Positions 11,496-25,543 of a DNA stretch of 25,543 nt are shown here, piece after piece. The position numbers and the translations under genes are program-made. The DNA lies in the IMG/VR virus record IMGVR_UViG_3300010885_013007, positions 1 through 25,543 of that record. One strand, 5' to 3'. The stretch comes from a virus. Numbering within the stretch: position 1 is the stretch's first letter; each line of letters opens with the position of its first letter. The notes beneath the pieces are model-generated. The model saw only the letters and a program-made list of their open reading frames with translations, was not told the DNA's origin and did no database searches.

Positions 11496-13417
<1,922 letters not shown>

Positions 13418-18841: not shown

Positions 18842-20023
18842 ATGACACAACATAAACATCAACACATTGAAACCTTCATTGAAATCGTTGCCGGCTTTCG
18901 TAACCCTGCAGGATCAATAGTGGGCAGTTTATACATGATGGGCGAGCCATTGATTAGTTTAGCCAGGTATGACGTAAAGGTAATTGAAAATTTATGTCAG
19001 CAAAGTCAAAACGGAATAGCGTACACAGACCGACAGGCTAAACTTGCTGTGGACTTGATCGTTAAGTACGAGCGACAGCTGGCCAAGCATAACATCAGTA
19101 TCGAAAATGTAAAAGTCTTACCAGAGTTTAGATTGCCTTTACGCACCATTGACCGTAGTACCCGTGTTTGGGTAGAAGACAACCTTATCAAGATTCGTTT
19201 TCCTTATGCACCAAATTTAATTGACAGCATACGAGAACAAAGCAAAACCAATCACGGCACGGTCAAATGGAATCAAACTAAAAGGATTTGGGAAGCCGAC
19301 CTAACTGAGTACACAGTAAATTGGGCCTATGCATTTGCACAGGCGCATAACTTTGAAATAGACTCAAGCCTTACAGAGTTTATGGATTTGATAATGGCAA
19401 CTGAAGCAACACCCTATGCAATTGAATTAAAAGCTGAAGCTGATCAATTGAGTATCACCAATGCAACCACATCCTTGCGTGACTATATCGACGAAAATCT
19501 AGGCGGGTTCGGTCTCGATAACCTGCTGACCTTAGTGGATTACGCACCTATATTAGGCTACACTTGTGATCCTGTAATACAGGAAGTAGTAATAGATGCA
19601 TACGGTACTAGATTTTGGAGCCTATGCCACAACAGAGAACTCAAAGTAGATCAGCGTAGCTATTACACAGATCAACTAATAGAAATAGTTCGTTATGCAG
19701 AAGTTACCAATAGGTTTCCTATCTATGTATACGAACCCGACCTGAGCGACAAGCTGACTATGCTGTTAATCAGGCACTTTGCCCGAGAGCAAGTGGTTAA
19801 CTTAAACAACAACGAAGTCGTTACACCAGAAACACGTTTTGTATACGCTAACAAAATACCCAAAACATCTATTGACCGTATACCTTTAATGATTAGTAGT
19901 GCTGGTATGCTGTATGGCGGAGACAGAGCATTATGGATACAGCAGGCCGAAAAGGTTGTATATTTTACAAAAGAAGTATACAATAAGGGTGTTAAAGGAA
20001 GAGACATTTGCAAGCTAAATTAA
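18842..20023 (+). CDS. Conserved phage protein with a HARP-like segment, upstream of UvsW
   Basis: 393 aa. Residues about 113-175 (DNLIKIRFPYAPNLIDSIREQ...GTVKWNQTKRIWEADLTEYTVNWAYAF) resemble the HARP domain of annealing helicase SMARCAL1 (strand, IxxIK helix, W-D-xxxKxW strand). No Walker motifs are present, so it is not itself a helicase. The C-terminal half (IPLMISSAGMLYGGDRALW) is unassigned. It overlaps UvsW by 16 nt, which suggests a DNA-annealing or fork-binding partner for UvsW (inference). Starts right behind a sigma70 promoter without a Shine-Dalgarno. Confidence 0.8.
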   Translation: MTQHKHQHIETFIEIVAGFRNPAGSIVGSLYMMGEPLISLARYDVKVIENLCQQSQNGIAYTDRQAKLAVDLIVKYERQLAKHNISIENVKVLPEFRLPLRTIDRSTRVWVEDNLIKIRFPYAPNLIDSIREQSKTNHGTVKWNQTKRIWEADLTEYTVNWAYAFAQAHNFEIDSSLTEFMDLIMATEATPYAIELKAEADQLSITNATTSLRDYIDENLGGFGLDNLLTLVDYAPILGYTCDPVIQEVVIDAYGTRFWSLCHNRELKVDQRSYYTDQLIEIVRYAEVTNRFPIYVYEPDLSDKLTMLLIRHFAREQVVNLNNNEVVTPETRFVYANKIPKTSIDRIPLMISSAGMLYGGDRALWIQQAEKVVYFTKEVYNKGVKGRDICKLN

Positions 20024-21492
20024 TAATTCGAGATGAAGTTAATGTTAAGATTGAAGGATTGGATCTTACCGACCGTACAGCTCTAGTTAAGAAGTTTAAA
20101 TATGAAATACCCGGCGCTAGGTATCAACCTAGCGTTCGTCTTGGCCGTTGGGATGGCAAGGTTGCGTTCTTTCAATTGGGTGGTAGCACATATATCAATC
20201 TGTTGCCCGAAATACTTGTTTATCTGGACAGTAAGGGATACGACATTGAAGTCGAAGATAACAGAGACTATAAGACCAATTTTGAGTTTGCTGAAATTAA
20301 AGAAGATACCTTTAGCCATATTACTTGGCCCAAGGGACATCAGCAGGCAGGGCAACCTATTGTACTCAGAGACTACCAACCACAGATTCTAAATAACTTT
20401 TTAGCCAATCCCCAAAGCATACAAGAAGTAGCCACAGGTGCTGGTAAGACTATCATGACTGCTGCCCTGAGCAAAACTGTAGAGCCCTATGGTCGCAGTA
20501 TCGTCATTGTGCCAAACAAAAGTCTAGTAACACAAACTGAAGCAGACTATATTAATCTAGGCCTTGATGTGGGTGTGTACTTTGGCGACCGTAAGGAATG
20601 GGGCAGAACACATACTATTTGTACTTGGCAAAGTCTAAACGTGTTACTAAAGAATACACAAGCAGGCACAGTAGACATCACCATTGGTGAATTCATTGAA
20701 GATGTTGTTTGCGTTATTGTTGACGAAACACACATGGCCAAAGCAGATGCATTAAAAACACTACTAACAGGTGTATTTGCAAAGGTACCTATCCGCTGGG
20801 GACTGACCGGCACTATTCCCAAAGAAGATTACGAACGTGTTAGTATATTATGTAGCTTGGGCACAGTTGTAGGAAAACTAAGTGCGTCGGAACTTCAAGA
20901 CGCAGGACATTTGGCCAACTGTCATGTAAATATAGTACAGCTACAAGACTTTGTAGAATACAAAGACTACCAAAGCGAATTAAAGTATCTAGTTACCACA
21001 ACAGAACGTATTGCCTACTTGGCCAAGATGGTTGATAAAATTAAAGAAGGTGGTAATACACTTATCCTAGTAGACAGGATTGAAACAGGTCGGATACTAC
21101 AAGCAGAACTAAGCACCTTGTTTAGTTTATTAAGTGACAAGCCTGACGTGGCATTTGTATCGGGTTCTACCAAAGCTGTAGATAGGAAAGAAGAATATGA
21201 TGATATTGCTACATCTACTAATAAGATTATTATTGCTACTTACGGTGTTGCCGCTGTTGGTATTAATATTCCTCGCATTTTCAATCTTGTGCTTGTTGAA
21301 CCGGGTAAATCCTTTGTGCGTGTTATCCAATCAATCGGGCGTGGTATTCGCAAGGCGGAAGACAAAGATTTTGTCCAAATCTGGGACATCACATCAACCT
21401 GTAAGTTCGCGAAACGTCATCTAACCAAGCGTAAACAGTTTTACAAAGAAGCAAACTATCCATTTACTATAGAAAAAACCTCATGGCAATAA
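20008..21492 (+). CDS. uvsW: UvsW-type recombination helicase (SF2)
   Basis: 494 aa. N-terminal domain with ARYQPSVRLGRWDGKVAFF (37-55), matching the RFNPRFRYGNWDGRI part of T4 UvsW. Motif I ATGAGKT (142-148), II DETH (239-242), III LTGT (266-269), motif V ATYGVAAVGINIP (410-422) and VI QSIGRGIR (441-448). T4 UvsW unwinds branched DNA and R-loops, drives fork regression and helps switch from origin- to recombination-dependent replication. Start is TTG at 20008, the only start that keeps the N-terminal strand, with AAAGGAAGAG just upstream, inside the previous gene. Confidence 0.95.
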   Translation: MQAKLIIRDEVNVKIEGLDLTDRTALVKKFKYEIPGARYQPSVRLGRWDGKVAFFQLGGSTYINLLPEILVYLDSKGYDIEVEDNRDYKTNFEFAEIKEDTFSHITWPKGHQQAGQPIVLRDYQPQILNNFLANPQSIQEVATGAGKTIMTAALSKTVEPYGRSIVIVPNKSLVTQTEADYINLGLDVGVYFGDRKEWGRTHTICTWQSLNVLLKNTQAGTVDITIGEFIEDVVCVIVDETHMAKADALKTLLTGVFAKVPIRWGLTGTIPKEDYERVSILCSLGTVVGKLSASELQDAGHLANCHVNIVQLQDFVEYKDYQSELKYLVTTTERIAYLAKMVDKIKEGGNTLILVDRIETGRILQAELSTLFSLLSDKPDVAFVSGSTKAVDRKEEYDDIATSTNKIIIATYGVAAVGINIPRIFNLVLVEPGKSFVRVIQSIGRGIRKAEDKDFVQIWDITSTCKFAKRHLTKRKQFYKEANYPFTIEKTSWQ

Positions 21493-22186: not shown

Positions 22187-22453
22187 ATGGGCAGACTTAA
22201 ACCCGGCGCCACTTACATATACGAAAAAGCAGATGGCGTAACCTATGCCAGAGAAGCAGGGTCTGATCCCAGCACTAGAATTGTTATTGGGTGGGATTAT
22301 GATTTACAGAAACAATACGAATGGGATAAAATTGAGCATACTGCCAGGACAAATCCTGCTTTACAAGAAGCCCTGGAACGTGTTAAAATACTGTACGAAC
22401 TAAGCAAAGATGACAATGACCCAACACTCCCTCCTATGTGGCATCCAGTATGA
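22187..22453 (+). CDS. Conserved small phage protein (MGRLKPGATYIYE family)
   Basis: 88 aa. MGRLKPGATYIYEKADGVTYAREAGSDPSTRIVIGWDYD is a highly conserved start in T4-like phages of aquatic bacteria; the rest (LQEALERVKILYELSKDDNDPTLPPMWHPV) is helical, then Pro-rich. Function unknown. Coupled to the next gene by ATGA at 22450. Confidence 0.87.
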   Translation: MGRLKPGATYIYEKADGVTYAREAGSDPSTRIVIGWDYDLQKQYEWDKIEHTARTNPALQEALERVKILYELSKDDNDPTLPPMWHPV

Positions 22454-22917
22454 CAGATAAATTAAGTATTAAAAACGAAATGACGCAGTTTGATCGCAAG
22501 AACAGAGCGTTTTACGATGATCTCACTGACGAAGAAAAGAAGAAGTTTAGTCCTTACCTTATGATTCGCTATGGCTCAACAGTTGCTGGTAGTGCAGACT
22601 TGCAGGCCTACTACTTAATGAGCTGTAATGAACGACTTAATAAGAACTTCTTTGATATTAATACTACACATCATAAAAAGCTACAGTGGTTAATGGCCAC
22701 AACAGTAAGTCCCGGAATGGGCAATCAATATCATCAGTGGATTGCTCCAAAGAAAAAAGAAAATAACAATAAGGCAGCAAAGTTTTTTCGAGAACTGTAT
22801 CCGCACCTTAAAGAAGACGACATTAAACTATTAACTGAGCTAAATGATAAAGACGATCTTAAACGCATGGCTAGAGAACTCGGATGGGATGACAAACGAA
22901 TCAAATCAGACTTATAA
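22450..22917 (+). CDS. Conserved hypothetical phage protein
   Basis: 155 aa from ATG 22450 (ATGA overlap), preferred to an upstream start inside the previous gene. Helical: DRKNRAFYDDLTDEEKKKFSPYLMIRYGSTVAGSADLQAYYLMSCNERLNKNFF... and a C-terminal KEDDIKLLTELNDKDDLKRMARELGWDDKRIK. Similar proteins occur next to the zinc-finger protein in marine T4-like phages. I considered clamp-loader subunit gp62 for its size and place in the replication region, but see no decisive motif. Confidence 0.83.
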   Translation: MTDKLSIKNEMTQFDRKNRAFYDDLTDEEKKKFSPYLMIRYGSTVAGSADLQAYYLMSCNERLNKNFFDINTTHHKKLQWLMATTVSPGMGNQYHQWIAPKKKENNNKAAKFFRELYPHLKEDDIKLLTELNDKDDLKRMARELGWDDKRIKSDL

Positions 22918-23590
22918 ATGTCGTTACTGTGACAAAACGTTCCGCAAAGAATCAAGCCTTGCAGTACATCTCTGTGAACAAAAGCGGCGTTGGCAACAAG
23001 AAAAAGAAGTTGCAGTCCAACTTGGGCTCAAGGCATACCTACGTTTCTATGAAATCACACAAGGATCAGCCAAGCTAAAGTCATATGAGGACTTTGCCAA
23101 AAGCCCATACTACAATGCATTTGTAAAATGGGGGCGCCATATGGTAGGAATCCGTGGCATAAACCCTACAGCTTTCTTAGAATGGTTACTTAAGAACAAC
23201 AAAAAGATAGATCATTGGTGTAAAGATGAGTTTTATGTAGTATACTTACATGAGTATTTAAAACGTGAAGCAGTACAAGACGCCCTTGAACGAGCCTTAA
23301 AGGAAATGCAAGATTATGCAGACAACCACCCAGAACTCAAAAATGGTTTTAGCGATTATTTCCGGTATGGAAATGGTAATAGAGTGTGCTATCACATCGG
23401 CACTGGCCGTATTAGTCCTTGGATTGTGTTTAACTGTGATTCCGGTGTCAATTTTCTAGCAGACTTGACAGAAGATCATGTGGCAATGATTATGCCTTGG
23501 ATTGACCCGGACCATTGGCAACAGAAGTTTAAAGACTATATGGCAGATACAGAATGGGTCAAGGATATACTAGCCAAGGCAGGACTATGA
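22889..23590 (+). CDS. Zinc-finger protein conserved in T4-like phages
   Basis: 233 aa from ATG 22889. N-terminal YKCRYCDKTFRKESSLAVHLC (about 9-29) is a C2H2/C2HC-like zinc finger, followed by EQKRRW and a long helical body (VQLGLKAYLRFYEITQGSAKLKSYEDFAKSPYYNAFVKWGRH...). An in-frame ATG at 22844 would add 15 residues read from inside the previous gene; the finger placed near the N-terminus favours 22889. Probably binds DNA or RNA; the family is uncharacterised to my knowledge. Coupled to the mini-DnaE-like gene by ATGA. Confidence 0.87.
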   Translation: MTNESNQTYKCRYCDKTFRKESSLAVHLCEQKRRWQQEKEVAVQLGLKAYLRFYEITQGSAKLKSYEDFAKSPYYNAFVKWGRHMVGIRGINPTAFLEWLLKNNKKIDHWCKDEFYVVYLHEYLKREAVQDALERALKEMQDYADNHPELKNGFSDYFRYGNGNRVCYHIGTGRISPWIVFNCDSGVNFLADLTEDHVAMIMPWIDPDHWQQKFKDYMADTEWVKDILAKAGL

Positions 23591-24177
23591 AGTTTAAGTC
23601 AGACGTTGATATTGATTTTGCAGATCGTACTCAAGCACTACGGTTGCTTGAGCACACTCCTGCCAGCATCAATAGAAACGGTGCTTGGGTACAGCATAAC
23701 ACAGGGGTGTATGTAACTGACATTCCAATTGATCCATTTAATGGTCGTGCTAGTCTAGATTATCAAGCGGCAGAAGAACTTGGGTACATGAAGCTGGACT
23801 TTTTGAATGTTTCATTATATACCCAGATAAAGAGTGAACAGCATCTACAGGAATTGATTGCACAAGAGCCCGAATGGGATCGGTTATACGACCAAGAGTT
23901 TTGTAGTAAATTAATACATATCGGGAATCACTACGACACACTAATTAAAATGCCCGAAGCTGTAAACACTATACCGCGCATGGCCATGTTCCTTGCTGTA
24001 ATACGTCCAGCAAAGCGTCATTTAATAGGTCGAACCTGGCGGGAAGTTGCTGAAACCGTGTGGGAAAAGCCTGCTGAGGACGAGTATTTCTTTAAGAAGT
24101 CACACTCGCTAGCCTACGCACACTTGGTAGTGGTTAATATGAATTTATTGAGTAACCTTGCGAACAAGGGTAATTGA
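23587..24177 (+). CDS. Mini C-family polymerase-like protein (DnaE palm motifs)
   Basis: 196 aa. SDVDIDFADR (5-14) mirrors the PDFDVDF active-site strand of bacterial DNA polymerase III alpha (E. coli D401/D403); TGVYVTDIPIDP and LGYMKLDFLNVSLYTQI (66-81, D71) mirror the GVVI...KFDFLGLxTLTII region with the third catalytic Asp (D555); RMAMFLAVIRPAKR (131-144) mirrors the ALxRPGP block, and FFKKSHSLAYAHLVVVNMNLL (168-188) mirrors FNKSHAAAYALxxYQTAxLK. The order is kept, but the protein is about one fifth the size and lacks PHP, HhH and OB parts. It is either a degenerate, repurposed palm or a minimal nucleotidyltransferase. Comparison is by eye. Confidence 0.75.
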   Translation: MKFKSDVDIDFADRTQALRLLEHTPASINRNGAWVQHNTGVYVTDIPIDPFNGRASLDYQAAEELGYMKLDFLNVSLYTQIKSEQHLQELIAQEPEWDRLYDQEFCSKLIHIGNHYDTLIKMPEAVNTIPRMAMFLAVIRPAKRHLIGRTWREVAETVWEKPAEDEYFFKKSHSLAYAHLVVVNMNLLSNLANKGN

Positions 24178-24522
24178 TTTACGTTTGCTACGCTTGGTAG
24201 CCATTTCTTTTAGGCTCACATAAGGGCCCATTACAATTTCTACGTCTTTGCTGTTCATTGTACGTAAGCATACTCTAAATACAGCCCAGTCCATTTTAAG
24301 AAATACATTGATTGGGATCAATCTATTACTTTCCCACCACCACGTTTCCCCAAGACTTAAGAATACTTTCTTAACCTCATCGTCTTTTAACAGGCCAAAG
24401 TCATAAAGAGTAGTGATAATTTCATCGCTGTTTTGAATAATACCGATATAGTCGTTGCCACCGTAGGTAATGTGGCTCAAGTACGGGTATTGTGCTAGTA
24501 GTTGCTTGTAGTGTTCTTCCAC
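24145..24522 (-). CDS. Conserved hypothetical protein of T4-like phages (antisense)
   Basis: 125 aa, GTG start at 24522. MEEHYKQLLAQYPYLSHITYGGNDYIGIIQNSDEIITTLYDFG and LGETWWWESNRLIPINVFLKMDW...CLRTMNSKDVEIVMGPYVSLKEM are blocks I know from small conserved proteins of marine T4-like phages. Basic C-terminus (KRSKRKSITLVRKV). Convergent with the mini-DnaE-like gene, overlapping 33 nt at the 3' ends, and divergent from the structural genes to the right, with only 36 nt between start codons. Confidence 0.85.
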   Translation of the reverse strand: MEEHYKQLLAQYPYLSHITYGGNDYIGIIQNSDEIITTLYDFGLLKDDEVKKVFLSLGETWWWESNRLIPINVFLKMDWAVFRVCLRTMNSKDVEIVMGPYVSLKEMATKRSKRKSITLVRKVTQ

Positions 24523-24558: not shown

Positions 24559-25047
24559 ATGATTACTGTCAAAGCATATTTATACCCAAACTTAGCTGAG
24601 GTGCAGGTTTTTGACTCCTCTATATTTACAACAAGGAATCGCCAAGTGTATTCACGCCCAATTAAAGTCTATCAAGGCATAGATAACCCCGTTCAGGTCA
24701 TAGTACGTAATCAGGATCAAAAGAACGTTAACTTAACAGGATATACTGTTCAGGCCAGTATTCAAGATCCTACAAACCAAGTAACCGTTGAAACTTATGC
24801 TGTTACTTTTGCTAATACTGCTATTGGGCAAGGAACTTTTATCTTAGACAAAGGTACTATCAACACATTGGAACAGCGTTTTTACAAGTTAACATTTAAA
24901 ACTGTAAAAACATCAGACAGTACAGAACAACCGGTTTACATTGATGACAATTATGGTGTTCCATTGGACTTAGAAGTATTGCCGGCATATTGGGCAGAAG
25001 CAGCCTCACAAGATACCGAAGTTATTATTGATGGGGGTACACTATGA
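24559..25047 (+). CDS. Virion structural protein, fibre/baseplate N-terminal type
   Basis: 162 aa. RQVYSRPIKVYQGIDNPVQVIVRNQDQKNVNLTGYTVQASIQDP (about 28-71) resembles the N-terminal beta-sandwich of phage fibre and baseplate proteins (BppU-like NxDQKxVxLTG pattern). The rest is beta-rich with FKTVKTSDSTEQPVYIDDNYGVPLDLEV. Probably an adaptor between baseplate or tail and fibre. Late-type promoter upstream. ATGA overlap with the fibre gene at 25044 suggests co-translation. Confidence 0.82.
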   Translation: MITVKAYLYPNLAEVQVFDSSIFTTRNRQVYSRPIKVYQGIDNPVQVIVRNQDQKNVNLTGYTVQASIQDPTNQVTVETYAVTFANTAIGQGTFILDKGTINTLEQRFYKLTFKTVKTSDSTEQPVYIDDNYGVPLDLEVLPAYWAEAASQDTEVIIDGGTL

Positions 25048-25543
25048 CAGTATACGCAAACGTAGGCCACATACTATTAAAGCGTGGCAATACCATACAA
25101 AGTACAGCATACACAGGTCCATTGGGTGAACTTACATATGATACTGATTTAAGAACTCTACGTGTACACGATGGCAGCACCGCGGGTGGTAATATCATTC
25201 TTATTAATTCAAATAGTGTATCTTCATTATCTTCAACGGGCAATCTTCGTCTCACTGCCAATACCGCAGGGGTATCTCAACAATGGACCTTTGGTGGAAC
25301 AGGCACACTGACATTGCCCAACGGTGCAGTGATTCGAGACACAGCCGGTGATAGTGTGGCATTTGGTCAAGGTGCTGGAACAACCTCACAAGGTGTCCAA
25401 GCAGTGGCCATTGGTGCTGACGCTGGCGCAAACACACAAGGCGCTTACTCGGTGGCCATTGGTGTGTCCGCTGGCGCAAACACACAAGGCAGCACAGCAG
25501 TGGCTATTGGTAACGGTGCTGGTTCTACTGGTCAAGGTGAGGA
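25044..25543 (+). CDS. Tail-fibre protein with YadA-head-like repeats (3' end outside window)
   Basis: 166 codons visible, no stop. N-terminal GPLGELTYDTDLRTLRVHDGSTAGGN (about 25-50) matches the Mtd/fibre N-terminal motif (xGELxxDTDxxxLRVHDGTTxGG). A linker LRLTANTAGVSQQWTFGGTGTLTLPNG precedes four 16-residue repeats of the VAIGxxAGxxTQGxxS/A type, like trimeric-autotransporter head repeats that form a left-handed beta-roll. Expected to be a trimeric receptor-binding or long-fibre component. Reverse-strand ORFs here are shadows. Confidence 0.9.
   Translation, partial: MTVYANVGHILLKRGNTIQSTAYTGPLGELTYDTDLRTLRVHDGSTAGGNIILINSNSVSSLSSTGNLRLTANTAGVSQQWTFGGTGTLTLPNGAVIRDTAGDSVAFGQGAGTTSQGVQAVAIGADAGANTQGAYSVAIGVSAGANTQGSTAVAIGNGAGSTGQGE
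25356..25543 (+). repeat. 48-bp tandem repeats encoding 16-aa fibre repeats
   Basis: Units begin with GTGGC at 25356, 25404, 25452 and 25500 (the last one cut by the window edge). Units 2 and 3 share the 21-base block at 25422-25442 and 25470-25490 exactly. Protein pattern V-A-I/F-G-x-x-A-G-x-x-x-Q-G. Recombination between units could vary fibre length. Confidence 0.9.

What the first reader, a model, noticed from the sequence alone, without database searches (positions are those of the whole stretch)
23587..24177. A 196-aa protein with the catalytic-aspartate layout of a bacterial replicative polymerase
DxDxDF near the N-terminus, KLDFLN, an IRPAKR block and FKKSHSLAYA occur in the same order as DFDVDF, KFDFLG, FRPGP and FNKSHAAAYA in DnaE. 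All three catalytic Asp positions appear kept, although 80% of DnaE is missing. T4-like phages replicate with a B-family polymerase, so a mini C-family palm has no known place; it may be a nucleotidyltransferase, a decoy or a clamp-related factor.
Basis: partly seen in the sequence, partly recalled or inferred. Interest (0 to 1): 0.82.

Follow-up and report, generated by a model that had tools for sequence, protein, structure and literature searches.

The report
Half of a split mini DNA polymerase
The gene encodes the catalytic half of a tiny bacterial-type (Pol III) DNA polymerase that a group of large phages keeps in two separate genes beside their normal T4-type polymerase; this was predicted from genomes in 2021, so it is not new, but nobody appears to have tested what it does.

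Summary
Window 23587-24177 encodes a 196-aa protein with a trimmed C-family (DnaE/PolC) palm. D6, D8, D10, H37, K69, D71, R140, P141 and K143 are invariant in 210 distinct sequences down to 30% identity. Its AlphaFold model (pLDDT 93.5) superposes over 187-190 residues on eight Pol III alpha/PolC structures, matching E. coli alpha 397-781.

Nearly every long genome that carries it has a second small gene (~170-180 aa) with the GRGS part of the palm (alpha 279-393), stopping where this one starts. The phages also carry a B-family gp43. This is the split minimal Pol III alpha of 'group 2.2' jumbo phages, described computationally by Iyer et al. 2021 (PMC7824862). PHROGs already calls both halves 'DNA polymerase'.

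Best explanation: the halves assemble without covalent joining into a minimal accessory polymerase at the phage fork or in repair. Anatomy, pairing and purifying selection are shown; assembly and activity are inferred. Added here: the N-half lies beside the clamp-loader gene in four phages checked, and the pair also occurs in a 141-kb non-jumbo phage. The 25.5-kb window is too short to show its own partner gene.

The parts
23587..24177 (+). C-terminal half of split minimal Pol III alpha (196 aa, phrog_11778): second part of the palm plus a reduced fingers segment
23602..23616 (+). D6-x-D8-x-D10, equivalent of E. coli alpha D401/D403/D405 (metal-binding strand)
   Evidence: invariant in 210 of 210 sequences; segment maps to alpha 399-420
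23695..23706 (+). H37-N-T-G40, equivalent of the HAGG segment of E. coli alpha (H511)
   Evidence: H37 and G40 invariant in 210 of 210; alignment
23791..23808 (+). K69-L-D71-F-L-N, equivalent of K553-F-D555-F-L-G (third catalytic Asp)
   Evidence: K69, D71, L73 invariant in 210 of 210
24001..24018 (+). I-R140-P141-A-K143-R, equivalent of the FRPGP block
   Evidence: R140, P141, K143 invariant in 210 of 210
24091..24120 (+). FKKSH173SLAY177A, equivalent of FNKSHSAAYA (fingers)
   Evidence: H173 209 of 209, Y177 207 of 209; PF17657 rings here in relatives
22844..23590 (+). Conserved upstream neighbour with a C2H2-type zinc-finger motif (phrog_11058, function unknown); its stop overlaps the start of the C-half
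   Evidence: present in 221 of 229 eligible loci
24145..24522 (-). Conserved convergent neighbour, 125 aa (phrog_11637, function unknown), overlapping the 3' end of the C-half
   Evidence: present in 219 of 223 eligible loci
22438..22917 (+). Conserved neighbour (phrog_11758, function unknown)
   Evidence: present in 204 of 211 eligible loci
20008..21492 (+). UvsW-type helicase, part of the same replication and recombination cluster

Best explanation
The protein is the C-terminal half of a split, minimal C-family (Pol III alpha type) polymerase. SHOWN by sequence, models and genomes: it contributes the metal-binding aspartates, the conserved palm Lys and His, and a stub of the fingers; a second protein encoded elsewhere in the same genomes contributes the GRGS segment of the palm and ends where this one begins; the two co-occur and sit in replication gene clusters of phages that also have a B-family polymerase. 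INFERRED: the halves bind non-covalently to rebuild one active site, GRGS and K69 hold the triphosphate of the incoming nucleotide, D8/D10/D71 hold two Mg ions, and the dimer adds nucleotides distributively. Lacking PHP, HhH, thumb and most of the fingers, it would rely on other replisome proteins for grip on DNA. Most likely job: an accessory polymerase for gap filling, one-strand synthesis or recombination repair beside gp43.
For: Invariant catalytic residues in 210 C-halves and 81 N-halves. Profile match to DnaE far above shuffled controls for both halves. C-half model superposes on E. coli alpha 397-781, N-half model on 279-393: adjacent, no overlap. Fingers model PF17657 rings at the C-half locus in six of ten genomes, once over cut-off. 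Pairing: 8 of 8 phage records, 59 of 60 listed phage records, 10 of 16 long contigs, Slicko01. Mantel r 0.91 over 19 pairs. dN/dS about 0.06. C-half between uvsW and primase/helicase, N-half 3-4 genes upstream of the gp44-type clamp loader. Same proposal in PMC7824862.
Against: No biochemistry found. The two halves could not be co-folded here, so the interface is not tested. Without thumb and most of the fingers, templated synthesis is not assured. Three long contigs have only one half each way, including a 289-kb contig with the N-half only; contigs may be incomplete. The window contig is too short to show its own N-half or gp43. Correlated divergence is expected of any core genes inherited together.
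Confidence: 0.7

Rival explanations
1. The two halves assemble but act as a different nucleotidyltransferase (untemplated addition, tagging of RNA or protein, short primer extension) rather than as a templated DNA polymerase.
For: Active-site residues are kept in both halves while thumb, PHP and HhH are missing; the Pol-beta-like fold is shared by many nucleotidyltransferases (general knowledge).
Against: The fingers stub with the SHxxxY motif is conserved, and both genes lie in replication clusters.
Confidence: 0.15
2. A catalytically inactive structural or regulatory subunit, for example a platform or decoy that binds clamp, clamp loader or host Pol III.
For: Small size; N-half lies near the clamp-loader gene.
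Against: Strict conservation of every catalytic Asp and of GRGS across very diverse phages is not expected of an inactive scaffold.
Confidence: 0.1
3. The halves are joined into one chain by protein trans-splicing, as in cyanobacterial DnaE.
For: Cyanobacterial DnaE is a known split C-family polymerase (general knowledge).
Against: N-halves stop within a few residues of the EFLK end and C-halves start a few residues before DxDxD, so there is no room for intein fragments.
Confidence: 0.02
4. A decaying fragment of a full DnaE with no function.
For: Short length relative to DnaE.
Against: dN/dS about 0.06 in close pairs, hundreds of intact homologues, fixed gene order.
Confidence: 0.01

Closest known systems
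Split minimal DNA polymerase III alpha of group 2.2 jumbo phages (Iyer et al. 2021, PMC7824862); PHROG 11778 (C-half) and 11127 (N-half)
   Same: Same split into a C-half with metal ligands and fingers stub and an N-half with GRGS, encoded by distant genes, beside a family B polymerase; this protein is a member by profile (3.8e-60).
   Different: The window member comes from an uncultured phage fragment; its own N-half is not visible. Nothing in the anatomy differs from the described family.
Bacterial DnaE / PolC (Pol III alpha)
   Same: Palm core, catalytic residues, RP and SHxxxY motifs in the same order.
   Different: Two chains instead of one; no thumb insertion, PHP, HhH, and only a fraction of the fingers.
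Cyanobacterial split DnaE with split intein
   Same: C-family polymerase encoded by two genes (general knowledge).
   Different: No intein fragments here; the break lies between GRGS and DxDxD rather than in front of the SH motif of the fingers (break point of cyanobacterial DnaE from memory).
T4 gp43 family B polymerase
   Same: Encoded by the same phages.
   Different: Unrelated polymerase family; a separate gene of about 900-1,000 aa.

Membership tests
Split minimal Pol III alpha, C-terminal half (Iyer et al. 2021) | Small separate protein with the metal-binding part of the C-family palm and a template-binding segment | tested here: met
   Invariant D6/D8/D10/K69/D71, model on alpha 397-781, PF17657 at relatives' loci
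Split minimal Pol III alpha, C-terminal half (Iyer et al. 2021) | N-terminal half encoded at a distance in the same genome | tested here: inconclusive
   Met in relatives; the window's own record is only 25.5 kb
Split minimal Pol III alpha, C-terminal half (Iyer et al. 2021) | Family B polymerase in the same phage | tested here: inconclusive
   Met in ten relatives' genomes; window record too short
Split minimal Pol III alpha, C-terminal half (Iyer et al. 2021) | No other Pol III alpha domains (PHP, HhH) in the phage | tested here: met
   None found in 13 (PHP) and 10 (HHH_6) relatives' records, with positive controls; the window itself shows none
Split minimal Pol III alpha, C-terminal half (Iyer et al. 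2021) | The halves reconstitute an active enzyme | not testable with these tools
   Needs co-folding or biochemistry
Full-length bacterial DnaE/PolC | Single chain with PHP, palm, thumb, full fingers and C-terminal domains | tested here: not met
   196 aa; PHP and HhH absent from relatives
Split-intein DnaE (cyanobacterial type) | Intein fragments at the break point | tested here: not met
   Ends of both halves leave no room for them

The most novel reading that the evidence does not exclude
Two separately encoded proteins of about 170 and 196 aa assemble without splicing into the smallest active C-family DNA polymerase, working at the same fork as a T4-type family B polymerase, so that one phage replisome uses both a bacterial-type and an archaeo-eukaryotic-type enzyme.
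Probability: 0.5. Interest if true: 0.78.

Novelty: new member of a known kind. Interest (0 to 1): 0.45.

Why it matters
If the pair is active it would define how little of Pol III alpha is needed for synthesis, give a natural split polymerase, and show two unrelated replicase families in one phage replisome. Iyer et al. also propose it as a model of the ancestral form of the C-family enzyme. The pair occurs in phages of common laboratory hosts (E. coli 121Q and PBECO4, Klebsiella RaK2, Pseudomonas Paride), so the question is directly testable.

Tried and rejected
Pfam on the single protein: no domain. phmmer against PDB sequences: no hit. The family profile against PDB sequences ranks estrogen receptors first at E about 1, with Pol III alpha at E 2-3: not significant, so the sequence-only PDB search was not used as evidence. 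An extra PF07733 match in CBB at 53183-53395 has three stops inside and was taken as chance. VIA-align lists a bleomycin N-acetyltransferase at Z 4.3 and glyoxalase/fosfomycin-resistance folds at Z 2.6-3.7 for residues 1-81; these lie below the Pol III alpha rows and cover only the small sheet. Decoy and pseudogene readings were rejected on conservation and dN/dS. A split-intein join was rejected on length. The full profile alignment at the DxDxD end slid into the thumb gap, so that segment was tested separately. The promoter/terminator scan was no better than its shuffles.

Full report
OBSERVATION. Its ATG overlaps the upstream stop. The motifs DVDIDF, KLDFLN, IRPAKR and FKKSHSLAYA are present in that order. 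Pfam finds nothing and TIGR00594 is far below cut-off, but PHROGs places it in phrog_11778 'DNA polymerase' (3.8e-60), with weak matches of the SHS end to three full C-family phage polymerase families.

HOMOLOGUES. tblastn finds 63 phage records, most of 284-490 kb (RaK2, 121Q, PBECO4, CBB, GAP32, PA5oct/Paride, Atu_ph07, Phosso, SCTP-2, Vibrio 2.275.O and others). IMG/VR scans give hundreds of relatives. In 210 distinct sequences at 30-100% identity to the window protein, D6, D8, D10, H37, G40, K69, D71, L73, W97, R140, P141 and K143 are invariant; H173 is invariant in 209 of 209 and Y177 in 207 of 209. dN/dS has a median of about 0.06 in close pairs; for the window gene against L001 it is about 0.09, with dS already 1.2.

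IS IT REALLY A C-FAMILY PALM? Yes, by several routes. Profile-profile alignment to a DnaE set gives a score of 69.7 for residues 35-143 against E. coli alpha 509-642, and the DxDxD segment maps to 399-420; 40 column-shuffled controls reach 26.1 at most, and the reversed DnaE profile gives 23.7. The AlphaFold model has mean pLDDT 93.5 and pTM 0.83. Foldseek against the PDB ranks seven Pol III alpha chains first (probability 0.91-1.00), while unrelated rows stay at 0.20 or below. VIA-align superposes 187-190 of 196 residues on eight Pol III alpha and PolC entries (Z 6.3-9.8, rmsd 2.9-4.0); the next, unrelated entry has Z 4.3 over 53 residues. Some of these Z values fall under 8, so the argument rests on coverage of the whole chain and agreement among all family members. 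In E. coli numbering the match runs 397-781. The curated fingers model PF17657 independently rings at the homologous locus in six of ten genomes, once over its cut-off.

THE MISSING PIECE. The C-half begins at the DxDxD strand, so a palm made from it alone lacks the GRGS segment. Searching whole records with PF07733 found a second small ORF in all eight phage records tested and in three of six metagenome contigs. These proteins (about 170-180 aa) end ...GxGRGSSVASYxLxLIGxHxxxSxxYxLDxxEFL and then stop, matching E. coli alpha up to residue 393. Their profile scores 65.4 against DnaE (shuffled maximum 24.4). The model (pLDDT 88.4, pTM 0.65) aligns from about residue 71-79 to 170 on alpha 279-393, with Z 8.9-10.6 in the best nine rows; eleven of twelve rows are Pol III alpha. 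The first 70 or so residues of the N-half have no match. R101, E105, L118, G136, G138, R139, G140, S141, L148 and F168 are invariant in 81 sequences. PHROGs names this family phrog_11127 'DNA polymerase'. Thus alpha 279-393 and 397-781 are covered by two proteins, adjacent and without overlap.

PAIRING. Of the 60 C-half records listed, 59 appear in the N-half list; the exception is a 109-kb record. Of 16 long metagenome contigs, ten hold both, three only the C-half (108-137 kb) and three only the N-half (118-289 kb); any of these may be incomplete. The 141-kb Alishewanella phage Slicko01 holds both, about 11 kb apart, so the pair is not confined to jumbo genomes. Elsewhere the two genes lie roughly 34 to 224 kb apart in record coordinates. 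Pairwise divergences of the halves correlate over 19 genomes (Mantel r 0.91, p 1e-4), which is also expected of any core genes inherited together.

CONTEXT. The C-half lies in a conserved cluster: ssb, uvsX, uvsW, several unknowns, C-half, a convergent small gene, primase, DnaB-type helicase (not every gene is annotated in each phage). Among loci with enough flank, the C2H2-motif gene precedes it in 221 of 229 and the convergent gene follows it in 219 of 223. The N-half lies three or four genes upstream of the gp44-type clamp loader in CBB, Atu_ph07, Paride and SCTP-2. The same phages carry a family B polymerase whose motifs A and B are intact in all ten genomes checked and motif C (DTDS) in nine; SCTP-2 motif C was not found by the pattern used. 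No PHP or HHH_6 domain was found.

LITERATURE. Iyer et al. 2021 (PMC7824862; [quoted passage not shown] The CBB paper had noticed the N-half as a truncated alpha (PMC5259590), the Atu_ph07 paper lists an alpha subunit (PMC6102473), and a marine survey found PF07733 in 51.9% of one jumbo-phage cluster (PMC9123017). Further searches of the held open-access library found no experimental test; most subscription papers and all preprints are not held.

MECHANISM. Shown: anatomy, conservation, pairing, gene setting. Inferred: non-covalent assembly of the halves, two-metal catalysis by D8/D10/D71 with GRGS and K69 on the triphosphate side (roles taken from general knowledge of Pol III alpha), and an accessory synthesis role. 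No split-intein sequence is present at the break, so trans-splicing as in cyanobacterial DnaE is unlikely.

LIMITS. G000 is a 25.5-kb virus record, so the window phage's own N-half and gp43 are unseen; relatives on long contigs that show both halves are about 50-75% identical to it in the C-half. The two halves could not be co-folded here.

VERDICT.

Noticed in passing
L293 (Pseudomonas phage Paride 88000-93700): The gp43-type gene breaks right after motif C (YGDTDSVDGST...), with a 565-aa ORF before the polymerase resumes; it looks like an intein or homing-endonuclease insertion at the motif C site.
   Followed up: no
L295 (Agrobacterium phage Atu_ph07 211500-214800): The family B polymerase is in two adjacent ORFs (549 and 418 aa), with motif A in one and motifs B and C in the other; the genome paper lists gp276 and gp277 as DNA polymerases.
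   Followed up: no
L386 and L392 (Alishewanella phage Slicko01, 141 kb): A phage well under 200 kb carries both halves of the split Pol III alpha and the same gene order, so the system is not restricted to jumbo phages.
   Followed up: partly
N-half family, residues 1-75 (model mfdbee63b6f70): The first 70-75 residues of the N-half show no match to Pol III alpha; they could be a phage-specific contact for the partner half or another replisome protein.
   Followed up: no
window 22844-23590 and 24145-24522: Two genes of unknown function (a C2H2-motif protein, phrog_11058, and a convergent 125-aa protein, phrog_11637) accompany the C-half in almost all loci and are candidates for partners.
   Followed up: partly
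window 11496-13417: ORFs that read as a GroES/GroEL chaperonin pair (sequence recognised by eye, not searched).
   Followed up: no
window 24559-25543: A tail-type ORF followed by repeats of the kind VAIG...AGxxxQG near the contig end.
   Followed up: no
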